This document shows positions 10,571 through 59,754 of a stretch of DNA of 64,000 nt, one piece after another. Position 1 is the stretch's first letter, and each line of letters opens with the position of its first letter. The notes below the pieces were generated by a model, which saw nothing but the letters and a program-made list of their open reading frames with translations, was not told the origin of the DNA and searched no databases. The translations under genes were made by a program, and so were the position numbers. Origin of the DNA: Sphaerosporella brunnea (lineage: Eukaryota > Ascomycota > Pezizomycetes > Pezizales > Pyronemataceae); contig VXIS01000002.1 in assembly GCA_008704415.1 (NCBI GenBank), positions 248,001-312,000 on the forward strand. Direction: 5' to 3'.

Positions 10571-13500
10571 ATGGCCGAGAACGGATCCGGATCGAATGGA
10601 AAGACTGCAGTGTCCACTTGGGCTTCTGAACCGACGTCGGCACCTCTGGCCCCCGTCAGCACCCCCGTTGCGAAGCGACCCATAAAAACCGGACGCAACG
10701 ATGTTGAAGATACGTTCAGGAAGTTTGCATCGCTGATCCACGCGTCGAACCGGCCGCTACCGAACCGGTACGGCAGTGGCCAAGATGGACCCTCAGAGGA
10801 AGAGATGACGGGCATCCGCCATGATATTGCGGTGCTGAAGAAGGGCGGCTTCTTGAAGGAGTCGGTGCAGACCCTGTTGATGTTTGCGAATGGCAAGAGG
10901 AAGGGCTTGCCTGTTGATGACAAGACCATGATCGTGAGTTGCTGTGTTCTGTGTCTAGGCAGGAATTGCAGGGCTAATTGGTGCCCAGATGGAAAAAATG
11001 ATCCAATTGACCTCCCGGCTACCTCCTACCAGTAAACTGAGAGTCAAGCTCACCACTGCCCAAGTCGACACCCTGTGGGATTCGCTTCAGCACCCGCCGC
11101 TGTCCTACTGCGGACCGAAATTCACGTACCGCCAGGCCGATGGCAGCCACAACAACATTATGGAGCCGACGCTGGGCCAGGCGGGCTCGCCGTACGCCCG
11201 CTCTGTCAAGCCGATGACAAAGATGCCTGGTGCACCCCCAGACGCATACACGGTGTTCGATGCCATCTTCAGCAGAGGAAAGGATGGTGAGAATTACCGG
11301 CCCAGCAATAACAACATCAGCAGTATGTTGTTTTACATTGCTAGTATCATTATCCACGGTTAGTTTGTTTTCCTTTTTTTCTTTCTTTTTGTTCGGGCCT
11401 GAGAGTGATGTAGACCTCTTCCGGACGAATCGCGCCGACCCAACCATCTCTGATACCTCCTCGTACCTCGACCTGTCCCCGCTCTACGGTATCAATCAGG
11501 AACAGCAGAACTCGGTGCGGGCGTTTAAGGACGGAAAGCTCAAGAACGATGTCTTCGCCGAGAAGCGTCTGTTGGCGTTCCCGCCGGGTGTGTCTGTGCT
11601 GCTGCTCATGTTTGCGCGTTTCCACAACCATGTTGCGACTCAGTAAGTAGTCCGTCCGCAGTTAGTGAGTTATAGGAGCAACGAGAATTGGGAGAGTATA
11701 TAGCTCGTCCCTTAAAACTTCATCCCGGGATTCCCCAATTCCCGCTGCTCCGGCAACCACTTGTAATCACTCGAGATTTCAGATTTTTAACAGCGTTGCA
11801 GATTGAAGGAAATCAATGAAGGCGGACGCTTCGACCTCAAGTTCGATCGCCGCTGGCACAACGATGACCAGGAGACCAAGAATGCAAAGGCCCTGAAGCA
11901 GCAGGAGGAGGATCTATTCCAGACTGCCCGGCTCGTCACTTGTGGACTCTACATCAACTTTGTCCTCAACGACTACCTGCGCACGATCGTCAACCTGAAC
12001 CGCGTCGATACCACATGGACGCTGGACCCTCGCTTCGATCCGTCGAAGATGTACAACCCCGATGGTACCCCAGCTGGTGTTGGAAACATGGTGTCGGTCG
12101 AGTTCAACCTGGTCTATCGCTGGCACTCGTGTATCTCGAAACGGGACGACGAGTGGACGCAGGAGTTCTACAAAAGCCTGTTCCCTGGCAAGGACACCGA
12201 TAAGTTGACTCTTCAGGAGTTCATGGTCGGCGTACACATCTGGGAGAACTCAATCCCCGCCGATCCTGCTGAGCGTACTATTGAGAACTTCGTGCGCCAG
12301 CCCGACGGACACTTCAAGGACGACGACCTTGTCAAGGTCCTGATGGAGAGTATCGAGGATCCTGCTGGTGCCTTCGGCGCCCGCAACGTCCCCCACGTCC
12401 TGCGTCTGGTCGAGGTTCTCGGTATCGAGCAGACGCGTAAGTGGAAGGTCGCCTCGCTGAACGAGTTCCGTGAGTTCTTCGGTCTGGCCAAGCACAAGAC
12501 CTTCGAGAGCATCAATCCGGATCCCGTTGTTGCCAACACTCTGCGCCAGCTCTACGACCACCCTGACTTCGTCGAGCTTTACCCGGGTATCGTGGCCGAG
12601 GACGACAAGGAGCCCATGGTTCCTGGTGTCGGAATCGGTCCCACCTACACCGTCTCCCGTGCGATTCTCTCGGACGCTGTCACTCTCGTGCGTTCCGACC
12701 GCTTCTACACGGTTGACTACACCGCAGGTGCACTCACGAACTGGGGTATCGAGGAGGCATCTTCGAACCCGAACGTCATGTACGGCTGTGTAGGGTACAA
12801 GCTGATCCTGAAGGCATTCCCCAACCACTTCAAGTACAACAGCATCTACGCTTGCCACCCGTTGACGATCCCGCTCGAGAACCGCAAGATCTTCACTGCA
12901 TTGGGACTGGTCCATGAGTACGACTTTGAGAGGCCAAAGTTCATCCGCCCTCGCATTCCGGTCACTTCTTACGCCTTGACCAAGCAGATCTTGAACGATG
13001 ATACCAACTTCAAGGTCACCTGGGGCGCCGGCTTCGACTACATCATGGAGGCGCCTTTCATGCTTTCCGGCGACGGTGCGCCCTTCGCCACTATGCGCAA
13101 GTTCGTCGGCGACCGTATTTATCTTGCGGGTGTCAACTGGCGGTCGCAGATCCGCGCTTTCTACAAAGAGCTGACCGTCAAGCTGATCCGGAAGAAGGCC
13201 TACAGCATCACTGGAGCCGGCTGTTACCAGGTGGATGCAGTCCGCGACATCGGTAACATGGCGCAGACGATCTTTGCGGCGTCCATCTTCAACCTTCCAT
13301 TGAAGACCGAAGACCACCCTAAAGGTATCTACACTGAGCAGGAGCTGTACATGGTTCTCTGTGCCATGTTCATCGCCATATTCTTCGACATGGACTCCTC
13401 CAAGTCCTTCCCCCTGCGCCACGCCGCCTACGCCGCCACCCGCCAGTTTGGCGCTGTGGTCGAGGCCCAGGTCAAGGCTGTGAAGAGCTGGGGCTGGCTC

Positions 13501-14226
13501 CAGGGCGTCTGGGACCCTCTCAACATCCGCGGCCGCAACAAGTCCCCACTGCACGATTATGGCTACCACATGATCAGCCGGCTGCTGGAGTCGGGCGAGT
13601 CCCCCGCCTCCGTTACCTGGAAGTACATCGTCCCGACCGCCGGCGCCTCGGCCCCGAACCAGGCCCAGCTTTTCGCCCAGGTCCTCGACTTCTACCTCCA
13701 GGATGAGAACGCGCACCACCTCGCCGAGATCCAGCGACTTGCAGCCCTTGACACCGACGAGTCCTGGGAGACTATCAAGAAGTATGCGCTTGAGGGCGGC
13801 CGCCTCGCAGGCACCTTCGGCCTGTATAGACGCTTCGACGGCGCGTCCATGACCGTCCACGATGGCGCCCACCCCATCGAGCTAGTCAAAGACGACCTCG
13901 TCTTCGTTTCCTTCGTTTCCGCCTCCCGCGACCCCATCGTCTTCCCCGACCCTCTCGAGATCAGACTCGACCGCCCTGAAGAATTCTATATGCAGTACGG
14001 CGACGGACCGCACGAGTGTCTGGGCAAAGCCGCCAATATCATTGGGCTTACGACGATGCTGATGGAGTTTGGAAAGCTCCCTGGACTGAGACGCGCCCCT
14101 GGCCCCGCTGGAATGATGAAGACCATTCCGAAGCCGGGTGGGTTTAAGATTTATATGAAGGAGGATTGGAGCAGCTTTTGGCCGTTCCCGACGTGCATGA
14201 AGGTGAGGTTCGATGACATTATTTAG
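10571..14226 (+). CDS. ppoA: Psi-factor-producing oxygenase (linoleate diol synthase family)
   Basis: Four exons: 10571-10933, 10989-11358, 11414-11642, 11802-14226. All junctions are GT-AG and in frame, giving 1128 aa, the usual size. The N-terminal half is a cyclooxygenase-like haem peroxidase/dioxygenase domain. It has the IIIHDLF distal-His segment (H244), TSSYLDLSPLYG, and the YRWH motif (Y426, catalytic Tyr; H429, proximal haem ligand). The C-terminal third is a P450 fold with an I-helix-like segment GASAPNQAQLFAQ and the haem-thiolate motif GPHECLG (C1060). In this family the dioxygenase makes 8-hydroperoxides of C18 fatty acids and an intact P450 half isomerises them to diols (psi factors, which govern sexual/asexual development). 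Because the thiolate Cys is present, a PpoA-like diol synthase is more likely than a PpoC-like enzyme; the isomer made cannot be read from sequence. Confidence 0.93.
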
Positions 14227-19661: not shown

Positions 19662-19885
19662 GTGCTGGCGTGGGAGTGGGGATGTGTTGTACGATAGGAT
19701 TGCATTATCTGCCATCACCCACTTTCAAAAAGTTATTCGGCTACCCCCTGAAACTTCCAATCGAGCAATCGAGTGAGCCACAGTGAGCCAAGTCGTCACG
19801 CGTGCGTGCTTGTTTGTGTAGCTCCAACCCCGTCCATCACGCGCAATTCCATTTCATCCCATCAATCACAACTCAAGCAAACACA

Positions 19886-21349
19886 ATGTTGGAGTCCAGT
19901 GGGCTGCACGAGGGCCCAGACCACAAAGACATCGACTCCTGGCCGCAGCTAACTCTGACCTCCTTCAGCATTAGCCTCGCGTCCTCAACGCGTTCACGGT
20001 CACAGAGCGCAGCGTCGTCGTCATCATCATCGTCACACCCCGTCGACCTCTTCGACGTGTGTGGCACGCACGACCAGCCCGTACGCGTCGTCGGCCGCCT
20101 GCAGAAATGTGGCCGCGGTTGGAAAAACGCCGTCCGCTCTCCGCTCGTTTTTGACGAGGACCTGGTGATCCCGCAGGTGGAGACGTTTAGCATGGAGCTG
20201 GTGAAGGGCGTCGTGGTGATCTGGGTGCTGGGTGAGGCGGGCTGGTACAAGCTGCTTGAACCGAAGGAGGAGTACAGCGACACCTTCGAGATGCTGCGCG
20301 AAAAGGCCAGGATCTGGCTATGGATCAGGGAGTGGAGGGGGGGCCAGGACGTGCTGCGAGCGCTGGCGGGTGAGTTGGCGGTGACGAGAAGAGAGGCGAG
20401 AATGCGGCTGCAAGCCCATTGCCGCTTTCTGCTGACCATGATGTTGAAGCCCCCTGAAGGCGATGTGGAGCTGTGGAAGGGGACTAGGATGTGGGAGTTC
20501 TTGAGCACGGAGTTTGAGGTGCGTTCAATCCCTCCGACGGCACGGCCACGCTGATGATCGTAGGGATTGGTTGAGGAGGCGTTGAGCCTCTACGGTCTCA
20601 ACAAGAAGGTTACAAAGCAGAAAGAGAAAGCAATTGAGCCAGCACCACCACCACCACCGCCGCCTACACCTCCGCCGCCAGTAGAAGAAGAAGCTCCAGC
20701 AGCCGCCTCCCCCAAAGAACCAGTAGACGACCCCGGCAGCACCGCCGCCATCATCTCCTCCTCCTCTGACGGCGACGAAGAACCCGCAACCCCCGAACAC
20801 GACGACGACGACGACTCCGCTGCTATCGGCAAAACCGTCTCGACCAAAGGCCGCTCCGTGCTGCGTCCTAGCTGCAACGAAGTCTTGCTCGACGCCGAAA
20901 GCCTACCACCACTCACTACCACCACCACCTCCTCCTCCTCCCCCTCCCCCTCCTCCCCCTCCTCCACAGCTTCCGAACCCGCCTCGCCCTCCGACCTCCG
21001 CCTAAAGCGCCGACTACCAGTCGACCTTTGCTCTCCGAGCGGTAGCCAACCAAAGCGGACTCCCCTCTCCCCACCTCCACAGCACGTCAGCCCCCGAAAA
21101 AAAGAATGGAAATGCTCGCGCTGCAACTTCGTCGTGGCCAACGCGAAGTCTCGCGACGGCCGCCTGACGATCGAACGGCACTACGAGACGCACGGAAGAG
21201 TCGTCAGAGACGCTGAGCAGATCATCGAGATGGAGGCTGCGGCTGGCGGCGGCCACCGCCGGGTTGATCATTTGATGGAGAAGATCAGAGGCCTCAGTAA
21301 GCAGTGGGAGGAGGGCAGGCCCACCCCCATGAAGGGGTTGGGGGAGTAA
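19886..21349 (+). CDS. RFTS-like (DNMT1-RFD) domain protein with C2H2 finger
   Basis: Two exons, 19886-20518 and 20564-21349, separated by a 45-nt intron (GTGCGT...CTGAT..TAG), give 472 aa. Residues ~52-190 resemble the replication-foci targeting fold of DNMT1 and Raf2-like proteins: a beta-rich part (VDLFDVCG..., VRVVGRLQKCG), then VIWVLGEAGWYKLLEP and EEYSDTFEMLREKARI, corresponding to the family's W-Y-x-L-x-x-P-x-x-x-Y segment. A long disordered Pro/Ser/Asp-rich linker (about 235-375) precedes one zinc finger, C395-x2-C398-x18-H417-x3-H421, in a basic context. No methyltransferase catalytic motif is present. In fission yeast Raf2 an RFTS fold serves the H3K9-methylation complex CLRC; a heterochromatin role here is inference only. 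Start chosen at the first ATG in frame (CACAATGTTG). Confidence 0.6.
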
Positions 21350-51211: not shown

Positions 51212-51610
51212 TATTACGCGTACATTGTGTTAAAGGGCAGCATGTGTAGAGTTATTCTGTGTTGTGATTTGGGGGCGTTGTGGTGGAGCAGTAGCGGATG
51301 GAAAAAAAAAGTATGGGCGGCTGAAATTTTTGGACCTCGCGCAGAGCCTCACAAATTACTAAAAATGGACAGAACGAGTGGCATTACATGAGTACGTAAA
51401 TAAACGAGATAAAAAAATACAAATCATGAAAAAAAAATCTTCCATGTGAGGCCGATACTCTCTGCTCGTCAGATAAGCCATTCATGTACGCCAGCATTTA
51501 CCGCTTCGCCCGCTCTGCAAACCGCCGAATAGTCGTTAAGCTCACAGAATCCATAGCCACTATCACAGTCTTTTCAAGTTCGACAAACGTATACTTCCCT
51601 GTGGTGCACG

Positions 51611-51916
51611 AAACCCGTATAAAAAAGTTATACAAGAGTTATACAGCGCGCCCTGTATAAAATTGGGGTGCGACACATAAAGGCGTGTTATACGGATCGT
51701 CCACACAAAATATACAGATTTTATACAAAATTTATACAGAAGTTATACGGATTTTACCCCCGTTATACGGACAGCGTATACAGGCAGTTTATACAGAGTA
51801 GCTAGACAGACAGTTTATACAGAGTAGCTATACAGACAGTTTATACAGAAGTAGTATCCAACGTGACTCCATTGTATATATTATATACAGAAATAAAAAC
51901 AGAAACAACACACCAG
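51611..51916. repeat. Left subterminal repeats of the tnp2 element
   Basis: More than a dozen TATACAG/TATACGG/TATACAA motifs, including three tandem 26-bp units (CAGTTTATACAGAGTAGCTA plus TACAGA, 51784-51848). The right end has the same motif class (59411-59500). Subterminal motif arrays are transposase-binding sites in CACTA elements. Confidence 0.85.
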
Positions 51917-53456
51917 TCAAAAACCTCCACTGGCGCACCCATTGTCATTTTCAAAACCCATTGCATGATGAAATGCTTCCCGCGCGGTCCGGCAATCCTT
52001 ATTTGCCGCTGCGAGTGAATTGATTAGCGTTTTCTCAGCCTGCTGGTACGCATTGTCAGAAGTTTTGGCAGCGAACCCTTTTTTCCGCCCCGAGCGCCGC
52101 AGTCCATTCTGTGTGGTGCCGGCATCATCACAGGCAGTGTTTGTGGCCGCAATATCTGCAATTTGGCTGGCATCAACTAGTCCCCCAGCAATAGAAGCTG
52201 TGATTGCAGCAGCAGCAACCTCCTTTCTCGGCCGGCCCCGCTTCTTAGGAGTTGAAATCACCGCACTGGCATCACATGCAATGGGAGCTGCTATGGGCGA
52301 GGCAGGATGCTGTCAAACCAGTGAGAATCTTGTATATCAGCGAAACAAAGTATATACATACCGAAAGAGGTGAAGTCATATCCGTTGGCAGCGGCTGGGA
52401 GGCAGCCAGCACTGAAGCCTGTGAACAGTATTAGATAGCTATAGACAGAATGCGAGTGGGAGCCGGACTGGAAGAGGCGAAGGTATATCCACCTGTGGCA
52501 GCGTGGTGACAGCCAGCGCCGAGACCTGTGAATAGTGTTAGAGAGTGACGGACAGAACGCAAGATGGAGATTGACCGGAAGAGGTGAATGTATATCTGCC
52601 TGCGACGGCAGAGAGACATCCTGCGCGGAGGCCTATGAATATTCTCAGATAGCTATGGACAGAAGGCAAGTGGAAGACAAACTGGAAGAGTCGAATTTAT
52701 ACATTTGTGTGGCTGCGTAGGGGTGGTTGGACCCCCAGTAGAAAACTGAGTTGTACGGTTTGGGCGTCGCAGTGGAGGTCCTTTCTTAACAGTAGAGCGT
52801 CGTTGTTTAACGCCCTCAGAGCGTAAAACCCGCGGAGTGGGTACAATACCTGCTGCTTTTCGCCGAGCCTGTTCTTCATTCCGGTGGTTGACTTCACAAA
52901 GTGACTTCATTATACCAGCAGTGGTTTTTCTCGTCCAGCCACGTCTGGCGGCAAACTCTTTTGCAGCGGTGCACTCCATTGCCACCCACTCCTCTGGATC
53001 CCACTTCGTCCATGCAACATTTAGTTGCTTCCCAAAACGGCCAAGATAGTCTCGGACCTCTTGGCGGCAGAGCTGAACTGCGCTTCGATCCTCAGGGTGC
53101 ACTCCCATTGAAGCATTAAGGGCTCGAGTATTAGTCCAATGCCAGCTTGCATCTTCAGGCTTGCGACCGGGGTTGGTTGTATCTTGTGCCACCGACAAAA
53201 AGATGTTTGTCTCCGATTGGCTTGGAGATACAGCCTGAGGAGTTTGGCTTAGCTGGGGGAGCAGCAGTGGCAGTTTGTGCGGTACCTGAGTGGAGGTGGG
53301 GACCAACGGTTCCTCAGTGCCAGTAACTGGTATGGGTTGCTGCTCGCTGAGCATTGCAGCTCGGAACTGTTGAAACTGTGCAAATTCAGCAGAATCAAGT
53401 TCAACCTGAATGGTACCATTATGCGGACGTGGTGACTGATTTGAGGAGCTTGACAT
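51917..53456 (-). CDS. tnp2-element accessory protein with AT-hook
   Basis: Five minus-strand exons: 53456-52683, 52632-52576, 52525-52469, 52418-52362 and 52309-51917. All introns are GT-AG and phase 0; the total is 445 aa. Exon 1 encodes MSSSSNQSPRPHNG, a Gln/Pro-rich stretch and a Trp-rich segment (SWHWTNTRALNASMG, VAWTKWDPEEWVAMEC). Exons 2-4 are 57-nt repeats, each encoding 19 residues of the pattern S-x-x-x-V/A...LP..D-(I/M)-x-S-P-L. Exon 5 has an AT-hook, PKKRGRPRKE (about 336-345), and RRSGRKKGF. A minor-groove-binding accessory protein, comparable in role to TnpA of CACTA elements, is inference; I recognise no homologue. An upstream in-frame ATG at 53483 would add nine residues. Confidence 0.7.
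52362..52690 (-). repeat. Tandem 107-bp exon-intron units (3 copies)
   Basis: Exon starts fall at 52632, 52525 and 52418, an exact 107-bp period. Each unit is a 57-nt exon plus a ~50-nt intron with the shared intron body TTGCGTTCTGTC and acceptor TTCACAG (ATTCATAG in the first). The end of exon 1 and its intron (CGACTCTTCCA then GTTTGTCTTCCACTTGCCTT) also fit the repeat, so it began at the exon 1/intron boundary. Confidence 0.85.
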
Positions 53457-53697
53457 AATGGTAATAAAGGTAATAGTACGCACTTAAATGGACAGTGCTG
53501 TGGAAGGGGTAGATGCTATTGTTGTTGAAGTCACAACAGTTAGGATAGTCGTATAGTAGAATTCAGTGGAGGAAAGAAGAAGTACCATGGCGTAATGCGC
53601 CGGCTTCAGACGGCAAGGTGAGGGATGACGTCAGACTGTTACGCTCCGCGGGTGACCAAGTTGCTTTGTAGTCTGAGTCTAGTACCACTGACTGAAT

Positions 53698-54373
53698 ATG
53701 TTTCACCATAAACGTACACCCGCACCTTGCATCGCAACAATGCCAAACCAGTTTATGAGCCCACAGATTGCAGACCAAACAGGAGTGAGTGTGAAATCCA
53801 CTGAGCAAGCGCAAGCTGATGAGAGGAAAGAATACAAATTGTTCAATTCACTCGCCAAAATCGCGATCCCACAACCTGTATGCCACACAGCTTGAAGCTG
53901 ACCACACAGACGAAAACGGTGGTTGGCACGGAGCATCTGACGTTGATGCAACACAAGTGAGGGAGGTGGAGGCAGATGCTGTCCTATCCACAATGGTTGA
54001 TTCATTGATATCGAGGGAAGACGGCTGGGAGGAGTATTGGGAGGAGTATTGGGAGCTGTGTGGACTACCCCAGCAGAAGCTGTCATGTCGCCGGCGGTTC
54101 CTGGGTGTCAATGAGGCACGCAGACTGCGAGCTCAGGCATTGGAGCATGAGGTCCATCAGTTGCCAGGACAGCCAAAGGAGATGGGGCAGTGTGGAAGGC
54201 AAAGACAAGGTGCTACATCCCTGGACACCTGCGAGCTTGACAAGCAGAGCCAAGCAACAGTGGAAGTCAATGTTCAGTCTTTGCAGGCACTGGTAGCAGC
54301 TGTACACCAACTACAGCAGACAGTCGCTGCACTTGTACCAGACAGAACGAACAGGTATACAGATGGAAGGTAG
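53698..54373 (+). CDS. tnp2-element small accessory protein
   Basis: Two exons, 53698-53784 and 53891-54373, with a phase-0 GTGAGT...CACAG intron of 106 nt, give 189 aa. It is acidic and helical: LEADHTDENGG, the near-repeat WEEYWEEYWELCG, then RRRFLGVNEARRLRAQALEH and a C-terminal hydrophobic heptad pattern VNVQSLQALVAAVHQLQQTVA that looks like a coiled coil. It is transcribed opposite to and between the two minus-strand genes. Unrecognised. The start could also be the second ATG (MPNQFM), and a single-exon version from 53819 is possible. Confidence 0.55.
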
Positions 54374-54579
54374 AGGCAAGTCAGGTAGTGAAGGACAAGG
54401 TAGAGGCAGGACAGCTGTTGGGAAGACAACGTTGGTGGACAAACTGAAAGGAAATCAAATCCAGTGTTACAAAAACTTGACGTCATTCAATGTGAAATAA
54501 ACCACGGCCAAATCAGTACCAGTAAAAACATCAAAGCAAACAAAATGCATTTGCAACGTGTTTGTAACCTCAAATAATA

Positions 54580-57500
54580 TCAGAGAAGCAGCGAAGTAAT
54601 ACCATTAAGCAGATATTGGTTGCCATTCCAAACGAACAACCCCATTAACTCTTTGATGCTCTGCAGGGTTGCCATTTGCATTGCTCCTTCACGCACAATG
54701 TGTACCAGCCGTCCATCCTGTACTACATGAAGAACCCGCATATAGGCAACCTTTATTCCGTCTGGATAATTTGGGAGGGGTGGTAGCTCAAAGAAAAATT
54801 CTACCCGTCCAAAAGAGGAGATGATGTTGAGGGATCCAGGTTTGCAGTGTTCAAAACGCACGAGGGCATTGCTCCGCTTAGAATTGCTCCGTCTCATTTG
54901 CATTGACACCACTCGACATATCTTGTGCGTGCTTGTATTTTGAAACAATGCACCAGCCCAGCGGATACATGTTGTAGGAAGGGTACTTGTATCCAAAAAC
55001 TGTCTGGAAATATGTAGGATGTCCCGAGCTAGGCAGTGAAGCTCAGCATCCATTAAGGTGTGCTTTCGTGCGGGGGCAGTAAAACTTGGACATTGATCAG
55101 CTGTGATTGTGGGGTGTTGTGTATCGGTGATATCTAAATTGTCGATGAGACCTTGTACCAGACGGTGCGTCGAATTTGAATCATTCCAATGCTGTTCGCC
55201 TTGCGCTTCCGATGTGTATACCTCATGAAATGGATCTGTTGGCAATACATAACGTAAATGATGTGCTTGTTCCAGCTGCACCAATCGATTTGCCATATTT
55301 TGATTTGCAGCAGAGTGTGACTTTGCTGTATCCGCTACCATGCCACAGACGCTGCAATGTAACATTAGTTTCATGTGTTGCCTTTGTAGGGTTATAATTG
55401 TGAGACTTACCGCTCCATTGGCCATTGCCAAAAGACATATGCTGGGCCAAGATCCACAATAGCATCCTTCATATGGAGAAGCTGGTGAAAGGTTGGAAGA
55501 CACACCCTGAGTCGATCCCATTGCTTGCAGTAAAACCGTGCTTCATAGTAATGAGAAAAGCTGTTCAGGAGGCTACCTATTTGTTTTTGTTCTGTCCTTG
55601 TAAGGGATGGCTTCTCGAGCAGCGTAATTGCATCGACAAGATACAAAAACCCGTTGTAGTCCTCTTCAGGGAGCAGTGTCTTCAGGAAAATTGGTGCTGC
55701 CTGCTTGGTAACAATGGCCCACTCCGCAGCTTTCAGCTCATGGCAGTGTCGAGTGAAGTTTCGCAGGGGATCACCAAACGCAAAAGGGTAGAAGCCGGCA
55801 CTGTCTTCAAATGCGTTCCCTACCACCGTCCAGTCATCTGGTACAATATTCCATGGATCATCTGTGATGATAAACTTTGCCATCTTTTCCGAGCCCTTTT
55901 TTGCTGGCTTCCGTTCTGCATTTAATTGTTCTTGTGATGGGCTTACAGTGTCCGTAGTACCAGCCTCCTCAACGTCTGCCAGTAACTCTGCATCACCATT
56001 CAAGTCTGATGTGCCGTGAAGCTCATCATAATCTGTGTGCATTTCACTTTTGCCAGACACAGTACTTCGTCTTTTCACGTTGCTACTGAAAAATACACCG
56101 CGAAAGTGTCGAAAGAGCGCTGGCACCACATTCTCATACATTAAATGCATGAGATCTGGTGGAAAACTTCGAGGAAAATCAAGTGATCGCAGCTGCTGCA
56201 GGATTGTTGGACCTCGGATACCGTGTTTTTTCTGACAGGAGTCACACATGTCCTTGGCGATATGCCTTGCAGTGGCTCGAAATAAGTTGTCTTTCCGAAG
56301 TGGCAGTTGTGTGGGATTGAGTGTCGCCCAAGGATATTCGCTTCCTGGTCGATTTTTTGCCTCGTCTGGAGCATCGGCTGGTGGTGTGAATGGACAATAT
56401 ATGGACCCATTCCATATACCCCGGGCACTACAATACTCGCAGTAGGAGTAGCAGCGATTCCCCATGGTGTGCATAAGCTTAGCACGTCCAATCATGTCTG
56501 CACCAACAATCGTAATGTATGCGCGCATGCTGAATGATGCTCCTGCTCCCAAGTGCATCCGAGCAGCGTTATACGCTGGCAATCCCTCTCCAAGCTTTTT
56601 GAATTCTTGTACCAAGGGGTACAGGAACGAATCGACATCTTGTGGCTCTTTGGGACCAGGAATAAAGCCAACAAGCATCATATTTGACTTTTTCAACCGA
56701 ATTTCCGGGGGTAGATTTAGGTTAATCAGTAGTAGAGGCCAAATATAAAAAGCACGCCGCGATTTAAACACCTTAACGCCATCTGAACTGAGAAAGAAGG
56801 CAAGGTCGGTGTCTTGCGAAAACATCGGTCTCTGTGCGCTGTCTTTTTTCTGTAGTTCATGCATCAAATCTGCAGACCAAAAATCCGAGCATTGTCCATT
56901 CTCGCGGGCTGCGCCAGCCATGTTGCGATACTGAAGCATCAGGTTCGCCCTTTTTGCATCGCTCCACGCCAATTTTATTCGGTGGGCTACCGGGACATAC
57001 GTATGTTGTGCAAATGGCTTTCGTGAACTTCGTGCACCACTAGATGCTCTGAAGTCTTTGGTTTCCTTCCAGCGAGGATGGCTGCATATCGTGCACTGCG
57101 TTGCATCTGAATACATGGCATATGACATGCAACTGTTGATGCAACAGTCATATTGCACAGCCTTGATGCCAGTACGCTGTTCCCTGTACTTGGTAACTGT
57201 GCGCTCGTCGAATGGTGCTAGCTCTTTAGGCAGCACACTTCGTAAAACTGCATTGATTTTCTGTATGCATCTTCTTGGGATTCCAAATTCTGCATAGATA
57301 TTTGAGAGCGAGAAGGTGAGTATTTCTTGGGCAGACAAGCTGCGTCCGCATGGCTTTTTGTAATCGAATGCGTCCGCTTCGGTAGTGGCTTGCTGGGATG
57401 GCAACAAATCTTCTTCATCTTGGAAATCATTGGCGGTCTGACCAGATAAACAGGTATCTCCTTCGACATCTTGTTTGTTGTGACCCTCGCCTTTACCTTC

Positions 57501-58248
57501 ACCCTTGCTCTCAACCTGGTTTATGTCTTCGTCTTCCAAAGTGTCTTCCCCATGTTCCTCTTCTTCCTCTTCTTGAACATATCCCCGTCCCATTATACCA
57601 AGGAACATTCCGTTCTCTTCAAGGTACTGCTCTTCAGCCTCCTCATCGTTTGCAGCTTCAGGTTGTAACTCCAACGTGCTCTCTGGCAGCTCGGGCAGGT
57701 ACGAATCATATTCATTGTGGAGCTCTTGCATTACAGCCTCATATTCGTCCTCTGTGAGTTCAGGCAAGGGTTCTACATCTGCTATTTGTTATTATGGCTA
57801 TTGCATTCCACATCTGACTCACTTGTGTTCTACCTTTCACAGGCTCCAATGAGTCTGGTTCTTCTGACTGTGTCACTGTCCGTCTTTTTACTCGTGCCTC
57901 CCTTTTTCCGTCATTCACACGCTTGCATGGCACCTGAAGGGTTGGTAATTCCAGATACTGCGAATGTGACTGCTTTTCCACCAAGTATTGAGGTTGCTTT
58001 TCCACCAGGTACTGAGGTTGCTTTTCCACCATGTCATGCCATTGATTTCCGACTGGCACTGCAGTGCCTTTCCGTGGGTACTGGTGTTGTGGCTGGGCTG
58101 ACGGCTGCACAACATCTCCAGTGATGTTTTCGATGATATCTTGTTGCTGTTTTGCCAGGTGTCGAGTCCACTCTGCCTTTGATTTCACAACGTGACGAAA
58201 TTTCGCAAAGGAGCACATGCAGATCCGGGGTTCAAAACTGGTGGACAT
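54580..58248 (-). CDS. tnp2-family transposase
   Basis: Three minus-strand exons: 58248-57834, 57778-55411 and 55351-54580, joined in frame to 1184 aa with no stop. The N-terminus carries a Cys/His region (RICMCSFAKFRHVVKSKAEW, TRHLAK) as in fungal tnp2 proteins, followed by an acidic linker. The core shows YDCCINSCMSYAMY with TICSHPRWK, FFLSSDGVKVFKSRRAFYIW, LLINLNLPPEIRLKKSN, VGFIPGPKEPQDVDSFLYPL, ITIVGADMIGRAKLMHTMGN and CYSYCEYCSARG, which are the tnp2/DDE hallmarks (Asp in SSDG and GAD). FPPDLMHLMYENVVPALFRH, FWQWPMERVCGM and the end segment follow. All key residues are present, so it may be active. It would cut and paste this element by binding the ends and subterminal repeats. Confidence 0.9.
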
Positions 58249-59500
58249 ATTGTGTGTGGTGATGGGACAGTGCGCACCGGTGGGTTTCGTTGGAGTCTGT
58301 AAGGATCCTTGGCTGTCCTGGCAATTTCTCTGAGGGTTTCTATGTTTTGAATTAGCACATTGAAAAAATTTGGCAGCACTTCGTTACCACCAGAGGTGCA
58401 GCAACAGGCCGCAACAACCCCGGAAAACTATTGCAATGAAAGTGCATACAAAATCAGGTTGCCTTTATCAGGCCACCTTTCTCTTAAACGCACAAGACAA
58501 CAGTGAAATGTTCTCACCTTTGAACGATTCCTCACTATACACTTTGCCTACTAACGCAGCACCGAGTTCGGCAGGTGTACGTACCGGTTTTCCGTTCCTC
58601 TGGGGTTTTTGGGAGTCCTTCCGGGTCCTTTAGGGTCCTTGGCGGTCCTTCGGGGTCCTGGCAAGTCCTGGGGGTTCCTACATACACGATTAGCACGTTG
58701 AAAAAAATTTGGCAGCATTTCCCCCTGCATTTTGCTTCGCCAACATTGAAAAGCGGCCATCTGGCAGCACTGATCGCTGTTGGGAGCGTGGGTTGTGTCC
58801 TTACCTCTTCACAATCACTCTTCTCCTCTTACCGGTACTTGAAAACACGCCGGCAAAACACCGGTTGAGGGTCTGACCGGCAGGCAAGCCCGCGCTGGGG
58901 AGACTATGGAAAAACCGCTCGCAAGCAAGCTTGTTTTCCCGCCTCAGGTGTTTTCAAGCACCAGTACTTCGTCCTAGGGGTTCTGTCGTCACGGTGCTGA
59001 GGCTGGCTGCGGAGGCTGGCTGCGATGGCTGGCGTCACGGTGCTGAGGCTGGCTGCGTCACGGTGCTGAGGCTGGCTGCGTCACGGTGCTGAGGCTGGCT
59101 GCGATGGCTGCTGCGATGGCTGGCTGCGATGGCTGGCGTCACGGTGCTGAGGCTGGCTGCGGAGGCTGGCTGCGGAGGCTGGCTGCGATGGCTGGCGTCA
59201 CGGTCGCGCAACACCGGGTGTGTGTTCAACGCAGCGTGGTTGCGGGTTTGCAGTCGGTGTTGAAAAATTTTAGGGGGTATCGGGCAGCGTGGTTGCGGGT
59301 CGGTGTTGAAAATTTTTAGGTGTATCGGGCTTGCGCAACGCAGCGTGGTTGCGGGTTTGCAGTCGGTGTTGAAAAGTTTTAGGGGTATCGGGCTTGTGCA
59401 ACGCAGCGGGTCTCGCATATACAGAATCTATACAACTGGGCCCGACGCTGTATATCTTTTTGGTGGGGACCTGTATAAGATATACAGTTTCTATACAACG
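58249..59500. repeat. Right subterminal region of the tnp2 element
   Basis: No ORF. Successive repeat fields: GGGTCCTT-type octamers (58600-58680, e.g. GGGTCCTTTAGGGTCCTTGG); a duplicated AAAAAATTTGGCAGCA (58363, 58704); a minisatellite of GGCTGGCTGCGATGGCTGGC / GTCACGGTGCTGAGGCTGGC (58998-59205); three ~55-60-bp copies containing GCAGCGTGGTTGCGGGTTTG and CGGTGTTGAAAA (59229-59395); and TATACAG motifs to the terminus. It probably holds transposase-binding sites and the transposase promoter. Confidence 0.8.
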
Positions 59501-59754
59501 CGTGTACCACAGGGTACTTGCAGTCCGCACGAGTATATTTTTTCAATTCCGCCCAGTAATACTCGATGTAGTTGAGCTCGCAGTGAAATTTGCTTGCTGC
59601 TGTAGGGGCCAGAGAGTATTGCCGCTATAGAATAGACAGACTAGACGTAGGCTTCGTAGGTGCGGTCGTCGGGTGGGTCGTCGGGTGTCCTGTCGCGCGA
59701 CACATAACTTGTCACTCGACAATTACGGAGAGACTCATCTTTTGGACCGTGCCA

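What the first reader, a model, noticed from the sequence alone, without database searches (positions are those of the whole stretch)
51592..59519. Apparently intact tnp2-type transposon with unusual ends and a 5-bp target duplication
Seen: 14-bp inverted ends CCCTGTGGTRCACG, perfect TACTT on both sides, a transposase of 1184 codons without a stop, and two further spliced genes. Known: CACTA/EnSpm elements carry tnp2 transposases, start CACTA/CACTG and duplicate 3 bp. Inference: this is a distinct, possibly active lineage with its own accessory genes. Most other elements in the window are decayed, so an undamaged one implies a recent insertion.
Basis: partly seen in the sequence, partly recalled or inferred. 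Interest (0 to 1): 0.9.

Follow-up and report, generated by a model that had tools for sequence, protein, structure and literature searches.

The report
Fungal jumping gene with five-base footprint
A cup fungus carries an intact-looking 7.9-kb jumping gene whose cutting enzyme belongs to a well-known family, but whose ends and five-base insertion footprint differ from the usual pattern of that family.

Summary
Confirmed and sharpened. The element is window 51597-59514 (7,918 bp), with 14-bp inverted ends and TACTT on both sides. Two paralogous target copies lack it and carry one such 5-mer, fixing boundaries and the 5-bp duplication. The host is Sphaerosporella brunnea. The transposase gene (three exons, 1,184 codons) matches Pfam Transposase_21 (tnp2); its predicted fold resembles RAG1. 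A second gene (437-aa NCBI protein) lies beside it. Both recur in a full-length element on C21, flanked by AGTTG; dN/dS is below 0.4 for both. Of nine elements with paired ends, five have perfect 5-bp duplications, one a 5-mer with a mismatch, two 4 bp, one 3 bp; mismatched pairs give 0 of 72 at 5 bp. CCC ends are known in animal tnp2 (TRC) elements, with 2-bp duplications. I read it as a new variant of the CACTA/CMC kind that works like a two-protein CACTA element with a Transib-like 5-bp stagger. Movement is not shown.

The parts
51592..51596 (.). Left target-site duplication TACTT
   Evidence: a single 5-mer at this place in two paralogous empty sites
51597..51610 (+). Left terminal inverted repeat CCCTGTGGTGCACG
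   Evidence: 24 exact genome sites of the degenerate pattern against 1 control
51597..51896 (.). Left subterminal array of TATAC/GTATA motifs
   Evidence: 18 motifs in 300 bp; element interior mean 0.66 per 300 bp, maximum 5. C21: 11 and C8: 17 in the corresponding 300 bp
51917..53456 (-). Accessory gene (spliced; last exon with AT-hook-like RGRPRK); NCBI model FN846DRAFT_885697, 437 aa; exon borders not mapped by me
   Evidence: dN/dS 0.18-0.37 against C8, C191 and C21 copies; AT-hook match below the Pfam cut-off
53819..54373 (+). Plus-strand ORF, 184 aa, possible third gene; unproven
   Evidence: No match in C21; one metagenome relative P0035
57834..58248 (-). Transposase exon 1
   Evidence: the corresponding exon is used in an NCBI protein that matches the C561 copy
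55411..57778 (-). Transposase exon 2, with Transposase_21 domain, D329, D424, C443-C446, H761-H765, E785 (numbering of the 786-aa ORF 57767-55407)
   Evidence: predicted RAG1-like fold, residues about 145-786
54580..55351 (-). Transposase exon 3 (C-terminal part)
   Evidence: no Pfam match for the ORF 54580-55521; C21 counterpart a 253-aa open stretch
59365..59514 (.). Right subterminal TATAC/GTATA motifs
   Evidence: 6 motifs in 150 bp
59501..59514 (-). Right terminal inverted repeat, CCCTGTGGTACACG on the minus strand
59515..59519 (.). Right target-site duplication TACTT

Best explanation
It is an autonomous-looking cut-and-paste DNA transposon whose transposase belongs to the tnp2 (Transposase_21) branch of the CACTA-Mirage-Chapaev-Transib group. 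Shown: exact ends, a 5-bp target duplication against two empty sites, an open 1,184-aa transposase with D, D and E in the expected motifs, and a second conserved gene beside it. Inferred: the transposase pairs the two CCCTGTGGT ends, cuts the element out with a RAG/Transib-type DDE active site, and joins it to target strands staggered by 5 bp (4 bp in some relatives); repair then leaves the duplication. The accessory protein (a predicted helical stretch shared with its three database relatives, plus an AT-hook-like motif) would bind the TATAC arrays just inside the ends, as TNPA does in maize Spm (array binding recalled). Short elements with the same terminal bases would be moved in trans by relatives.
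Against: No expression, excision or transposition data. 4 of 9 paired elements lack a perfect 5-bp duplication. The short elements share little more than the terminal bases with the two coding elements, and the four tested lack the TATAC arrays, so they are not shown to be moved by this transposase. The C561 and the C8/C191 copies each have one in-frame stop in the part compared. The accessory protein has no recognised DNA-binding domain above a cut-off, and its model is poor (mean pLDDT 49.1). The RAG1-like fold is a prediction, at 6-9% identity to the RAG1 rows.
Confidence: 0.85

Rival explanations
1. An ordinary CACTA/EnSpm element with a misread boundary: the true ends lie inside or outside and the duplication is 2-3 bp.
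For: tnp2-type elements in the passages read have 2- or 3-bp duplications.
Against: Two empty sites place the break at 51596/51597 and 59514/59515 with a 5-mer present once; AGTTG flanks in C21 at the same end sequence; 0 of 9 elements have identical flanks at 2 bp.
Confidence: 0.03
2. A member of the Plavaka group of fungal transposons.
For: The transposase scores just above the Pfam Plavaka cut-off (27.7 against 26.3 bits); 6 of the 28 aligned rows match it at E 0.01 or better.
Against: Kojima 2025 reports 2-bp TSDs with TGT..ACA ends (PlavakaA) and 2-3 bp with CATCA..TGATG ends (PlavakaB) (passages); here 5 bp and CCCTGTGG. The tnp2 model scores far higher (61.5 bits), and the C21 transposase exon is not listed for Plavaka at E 1.
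Confidence: 0.1
3. The same kind as Sly of Neurospora crassa or a Repbase fungal EnSpm family whose ends I could not see, so that the 5-bp duplication is already recorded.
For: Sly1-1 is an ascomycete CMC element with two genes, C(2)C and H(3)H motifs, TIRs and TSDs; the passages do not state its TSD length, which the legend places in a figure. Repbase and Kojima's supplementary files could not be searched.
Against: The two Sly genes have homologues that are adjacent and divergently transcribed, an arrangement the authors call conserved; here the genes run the same way. No passage I read gives a 5-bp TSD for a tnp2 element (after searches).
Confidence: 0.2
4. A decayed or domesticated remnant rather than a transposon capable of movement.
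For: No near-identical full-length sister copy of the window element was found in the assembly.
Against: Perfect TSD and open genes in two diverged full-length copies; purifying selection; near-identical sibling fragments; no RIP-like direction of substitutions.
Confidence: 0.15

Closest known systems
CACTA/EnSpm (maize Spm; fungal CNIRT6)
   Same: Transposase of the CACTA/CMC kind; in Spm two proteins, TNPA and TNPD, are needed; subterminal TNPA-binding arrays in Spm (recalled)
   Different: Ends CCCTGTGG, not CACTA/CACTG; 5-bp instead of 3-bp duplication (CNIRT6: CACTG and 3 bp; CACTA 3 bp)
TRC elements of animals (SmTRC1 of Schistosoma, Tribolium, Aedes)
   Same: Transposase_21 and ends beginning CCC
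   Different: 2-bp duplications; the rest of the end sequence differs; another kingdom
Sly1-1 of Neurospora crassa
   Same: Ascomycete CMC element with two genes, TIRs and TSDs
   Different: 11.5 kb; gene arrangement divergent; TSD length and end sequence not in the text passages
Plavaka (A and B)
   Same: Fungal, same larger transposase group; weak Pfam match
   Different: TSD 2-3 bp and other ends
Transib / RAG1 / ProtoRAG
   Same: 5 bp duplications, typical of Transibs; predicted fold, about 430 residues aligned to RAG1
   Different: Sequence kinship to RAG1 not tested here; tnp2 profile; ends CCC instead of the CAC-starting Transib end (recalled)

Membership tests
CMC(T) transposase group (CACTA-Mirage-Chapaev-Transib) | DDE core with C(2)C and H(3-4)H between second D and E | tested here: met
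   D329, D424, CEYC 443-446, HQLLH 761-765, E785; criterion
CMC(T) transposase group (CACTA-Mirage-Chapaev-Transib) | TSD of 2 to 5 bp | tested here: met
   5 bp here; range
CMC(T) transposase group (CACTA-Mirage-Chapaev-Transib) | CA..TG termini 'in most cases' | tested here: not met
   CC..GG here; the source words it as usual, not required
CACTA/EnSpm in the strict sense | Transposase_21 (tnp2) transposase | tested here: met
   E 8.4e-17, 61.5 bits over cut-off 28.6
CACTA/EnSpm in the strict sense | Ends begin CAC (CACTA/CACTG) | tested here: not met
   CCCTGTGG at both ends
CACTA/EnSpm in the strict sense | 3-bp TSD | tested here: not met
   5 bp with two empty sites
Plavaka | Plavaka transposase profile | tested here: inconclusive
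   27.7 bits against cut-off 26.3 for the window; not listed for C21
Plavaka | 2-3 bp TSD with TGT..ACA or CATCA..TGATG ends | tested here: not met
Transib/RAG | 5-bp TSD | tested here: met
Transib/RAG | RAG1-like catalytic core fold | tested here: met
Transib/RAG | CAC-starting, RSS-like ends | tested here: not met
   CCCTGTGG; the Transib end is recalled
TRC (animal tnp2) | Ends begin CCC | tested here: met
TRC (animal tnp2) | 2-bp TSD | tested here: not met
Sly (Neurospora) | Same TSD length and ends | not testable with these tools
   Not stated in the passages; the legend places them in a figure

The most novel reading that the evidence does not exclude
A separate superfamily-level branch of tnp2 transposons in Pezizales, defined by CCCTGTGGTACACG ends, a RAG/Transib-like 5-bp (sometimes 4-bp) strand-transfer stagger and a dedicated TATAC-binding accessory protein. 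It would join the two-protein CACTA layout with RAG-type chemistry, and could be used to ask whether the 5-bp stagger is ancestral to the whole group.
Probability: 0.25. Interest if true: 0.65.

Novelty: new variant of a known kind. Interest (0 to 1): 0.5.

Why it matters
TSD length reports how far apart a transposase joins its two ends, and it is one of the features used to classify superfamilies. A tnp2 transposase with a 5-bp stagger and a RAG1-like predicted fold narrows the gap between CACTA elements and the Transib/RAG branch that gave rise to V(D)J recombination. Two full-length elements with open genes, an identifiable partner protein and motif arrays would make the stagger and the role of the second protein testable.

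Tried and rejected
Misread ends: rejected by two empty sites. Plavaka membership: weak profile match only, ends and TSD differ. RIP as the cause of copy divergence: the direction of transitions is symmetric (window to C561: C>T plus G>A 99, T>C plus A>G 97; C8 53 and 52; C21 28 and 26); the RIP indices of the element are 0.72 and 1.37 against 0.76-0.83 and 1.19-1.24 in its flanks. Three genes: the third is kept as unproven. Literature search for the end sequence CCCTGTGG: 56 papers, of which the 15 listed were unrelated by title. Allowing two mismatches in the end pattern gives no excess over control, so remote ends cannot be found that way. The sister tnp2 family C446/C523/C420/C131 (about 99% identical) could not be read to its ends. 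The right end of the C169 element was not found in the 616 bases read up to its contig end. The accessory protein model was too poor to search with. Ten of the 24 exact end sites had no facing partner in the exact and one-mismatch listing and were left out of the TSD count. Passages of PMC6164635 and PMC4455052 gave no TSD length for tnp2 elements.
Full report
The observation. Window 51597-59514 is bounded by 14-bp inverted ends and by TACTT on both sides. The 64-kb window is contig C112:248001-312000 of a 50.6-Mb genome in 640 contigs. An NCBI protein of Sphaerosporella brunnea (FN846DRAFT_885697) is 100% identical to the accessory query over 97% of it and lies on a contig of 425,053 bases, the length of C112. 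A second NCBI protein of that species matches the C561 copy in every aligned residue apart from one gap that looks like an annotated intron and one residue where two aligned pieces meet. The host is therefore S. brunnea, an ascomycete of the Pezizales.

Boundaries and duplication. The left flank matches two other places (C182, 83% over 139 bp; C156, 89% over 107 bp) up to the insertion point. The right flank matches 15 other places, among them the same two. Aligned with the window flanks (one TACTT kept), both carry a single 5-mer at the junction, TATTT and TGCTT. This shows insertion, exact boundaries and a 5-bp duplication. The target is a remnant of another element: the C182 paralogue matches DDE_3 at 3.7e-5, below the curated cut-off (24.1 against 28.6 bits).

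Other elements with these ends. The end pattern has 24 exact genome sites against 1 reversed control. I took every facing pair within about 8 kb in the exact and one-mismatch listing, nine elements including the window: 14 of the 24 exact sites belong to these nine, 10 are single. Flanks: window TACTT, C21 AGTTG, C152 AGGGG, C223b AAAAT, C615 GTGTG (perfect 5 bp); C223a TTTTG/TTTCG; C434 GTAT and C519 AACA (4 bp); C556 AGG (3 bp). At 5 bp, 5 of 9 own pairs and 0 of 72 mismatched pairs are identical; at 4 bp 2 of 9 and 0 of 72; at 3 bp 2 of 9 (one of them also a 5-bp case) and 1 of 72. So 5 bp is the main length and 4 bp may be an alternative. All four imperfect cases are short elements. The seven short elements (0.8-2.3 kb) resemble one another and not the two coding ones beyond the terminal bases, apart from one 97-bp match between C223a and C21; by eye one of their ends resembles the left end of the decayed C169 element.

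Genes. The transposase gene has GT-AG introns of 55 and 59 bp and codes for 1,184 aa. The second intron falls in the codon after the proposed catalytic E. The accessory gene lies downstream in the same orientation; the NCBI model gives 437 aa and ends with the same residues as the last window exon. The C21 element (7,065 bp) repeats this order, with stop-free stretches of 964 and 253 aa for the transposase and 460 and 133 aa for the accessory gene. dN/dS of the transposase is 0.12 (C21; dS is saturated at 2.3), 0.21 (C561) and 0.30 (C601); of the accessory gene 0.36-0.37 (C8), 0.37 (C191, last exon) and 0.18-0.35 (C21; dS saturated for the first part). The C561 and the C8/C191 copies each have one in-frame stop in the part compared. 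The plus-strand ORF 53819-54373 has no counterpart in C21; the C8 and C561 fragments stop short of it on either side. One metagenome protein shares 67 of 127 aligned positions, so it may be a gene of some members only.

Transposase kinship. Pfam gives Transposase_21 at 8.4e-17 and Plavaka at 2e-6; all 28 aligned rows, the window included, match Transposase_21. D295 and D329 are invariant in 28 of 28 and D424 in 27 of 28 (one gap); E785 is E in all 11 rows with a letter there. In a tree of 30 rows, the window, C561, P0001, C21, P0002, C169 and P0007 form a clade with 100/100 support; the other S. brunnea tnp2 rows (C24, C357, C273, C423; C420, C635) fall elsewhere. The tree is unrooted (midpoint for drawing), has three long end branches, and has no named EnSpm or Plavaka references.

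Ends and the accessory protein. TATAC/GTATA motifs number 18 in the left 300 bp and 6 in the right 150 bp of the window element, against a mean of 0.66 and a maximum of 5 per 300 bp inside it and a maximum of 3 outside it in the window. C21 and C8 show the same clustering on the accessory-gene side (11 and 17 per 300 bp); C21 has 2 in the last 150 bp at its other end; four short elements tested have 0 or 1. Maize Spm has TNPA-binding subterminal arrays (recalled; need for TNPA and TNPD). The analogy is inference.

Age and activity. Over long stretches the window copy is 84-89% identical to its nearest relatives; the last 98 bp at the right end are 97% identical to C601 and C111. Those siblings are cut by contig ends and are 99.5% (C561/C601, 1,922 bp), 100% (C8/C191, 822 bp) and, with 39 gap positions, 95.6% (C111/C601, 932 bp) identical to one another. 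The first two values are as expected of recent copies collapsed in assembly. No RIP-like direction was seen. Activity is possible but not shown.

Literature. Read as passages: PMC12730594 (Kojima 2025; section 22 in full) gives Plavaka TSDs of 2-3 bp, EnSpm 3 bp and 2-5 bp for the whole CMCT group. PMC1636069 gives CCC ends with 2-bp TSDs for animal TRC elements. PMC12810828 gives CNIRT6 (CACTG, 3 bp) and CNEST (CACGG, TA). PMC4592977 describes Sly1-1. PMC4411706 gives 5 bp as typical of Transibs. PMC4158355 gives 3 bp for CACTA. In the passages read after searches I found no tnp2 element with a 5-bp TSD; Repbase, subscription papers, figures and supplements were out of reach, so priority is not established.

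Verdict. The element is a new variant of a known kind: a tnp2 transposon that works like a two-protein CACTA element but fails two strict CACTA criteria, end sequence and TSD length.

Noticed in passing
window 52360-52718: Three copies of a 145-bp repeat at 107-bp spacing (70-72% alike) inside the accessory gene, which appear to repeat exon-intron pieces; unit-by-unit splicing not mapped.
   Followed up: no
window about 58300-59200: The stretch upstream of the transposase start has more than 30 matches elsewhere in the genome, many without the rest of the element and some in its relatives; a GC-rich minisatellite lies at about 58990-59220.
   Followed up: no
L078-L082 (C22, C623, C223 twice, C201): Five CCCTATGGTACACG sites share the flank ATGAAAG, so they probably sit inside another repeat rather than at independent insertions.
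   Followed up: no
L048-L051 (C131, C446, C523, C420): Another tnp2 family with four copies about 99% identical over 2.3 kb or more, a candidate for recent transposition; its ends and TSD were not reached.
   Followed up: partly
window 19802-20554: ORF with a DNMT1 replication-foci domain (7.1e-7), perhaps part of a cytosine methyltransferase gene.
   Followed up: no
window 11803-14226: ORF with an animal haem peroxidase domain (2.5e-20).
   Followed up: no
C169:67858-73180 (L057, L070): Decayed relative with a CCATGTGGTACACG end, a tnp2 gene with stops and a remnant of the accessory gene in the same order.
   Followed up: partly
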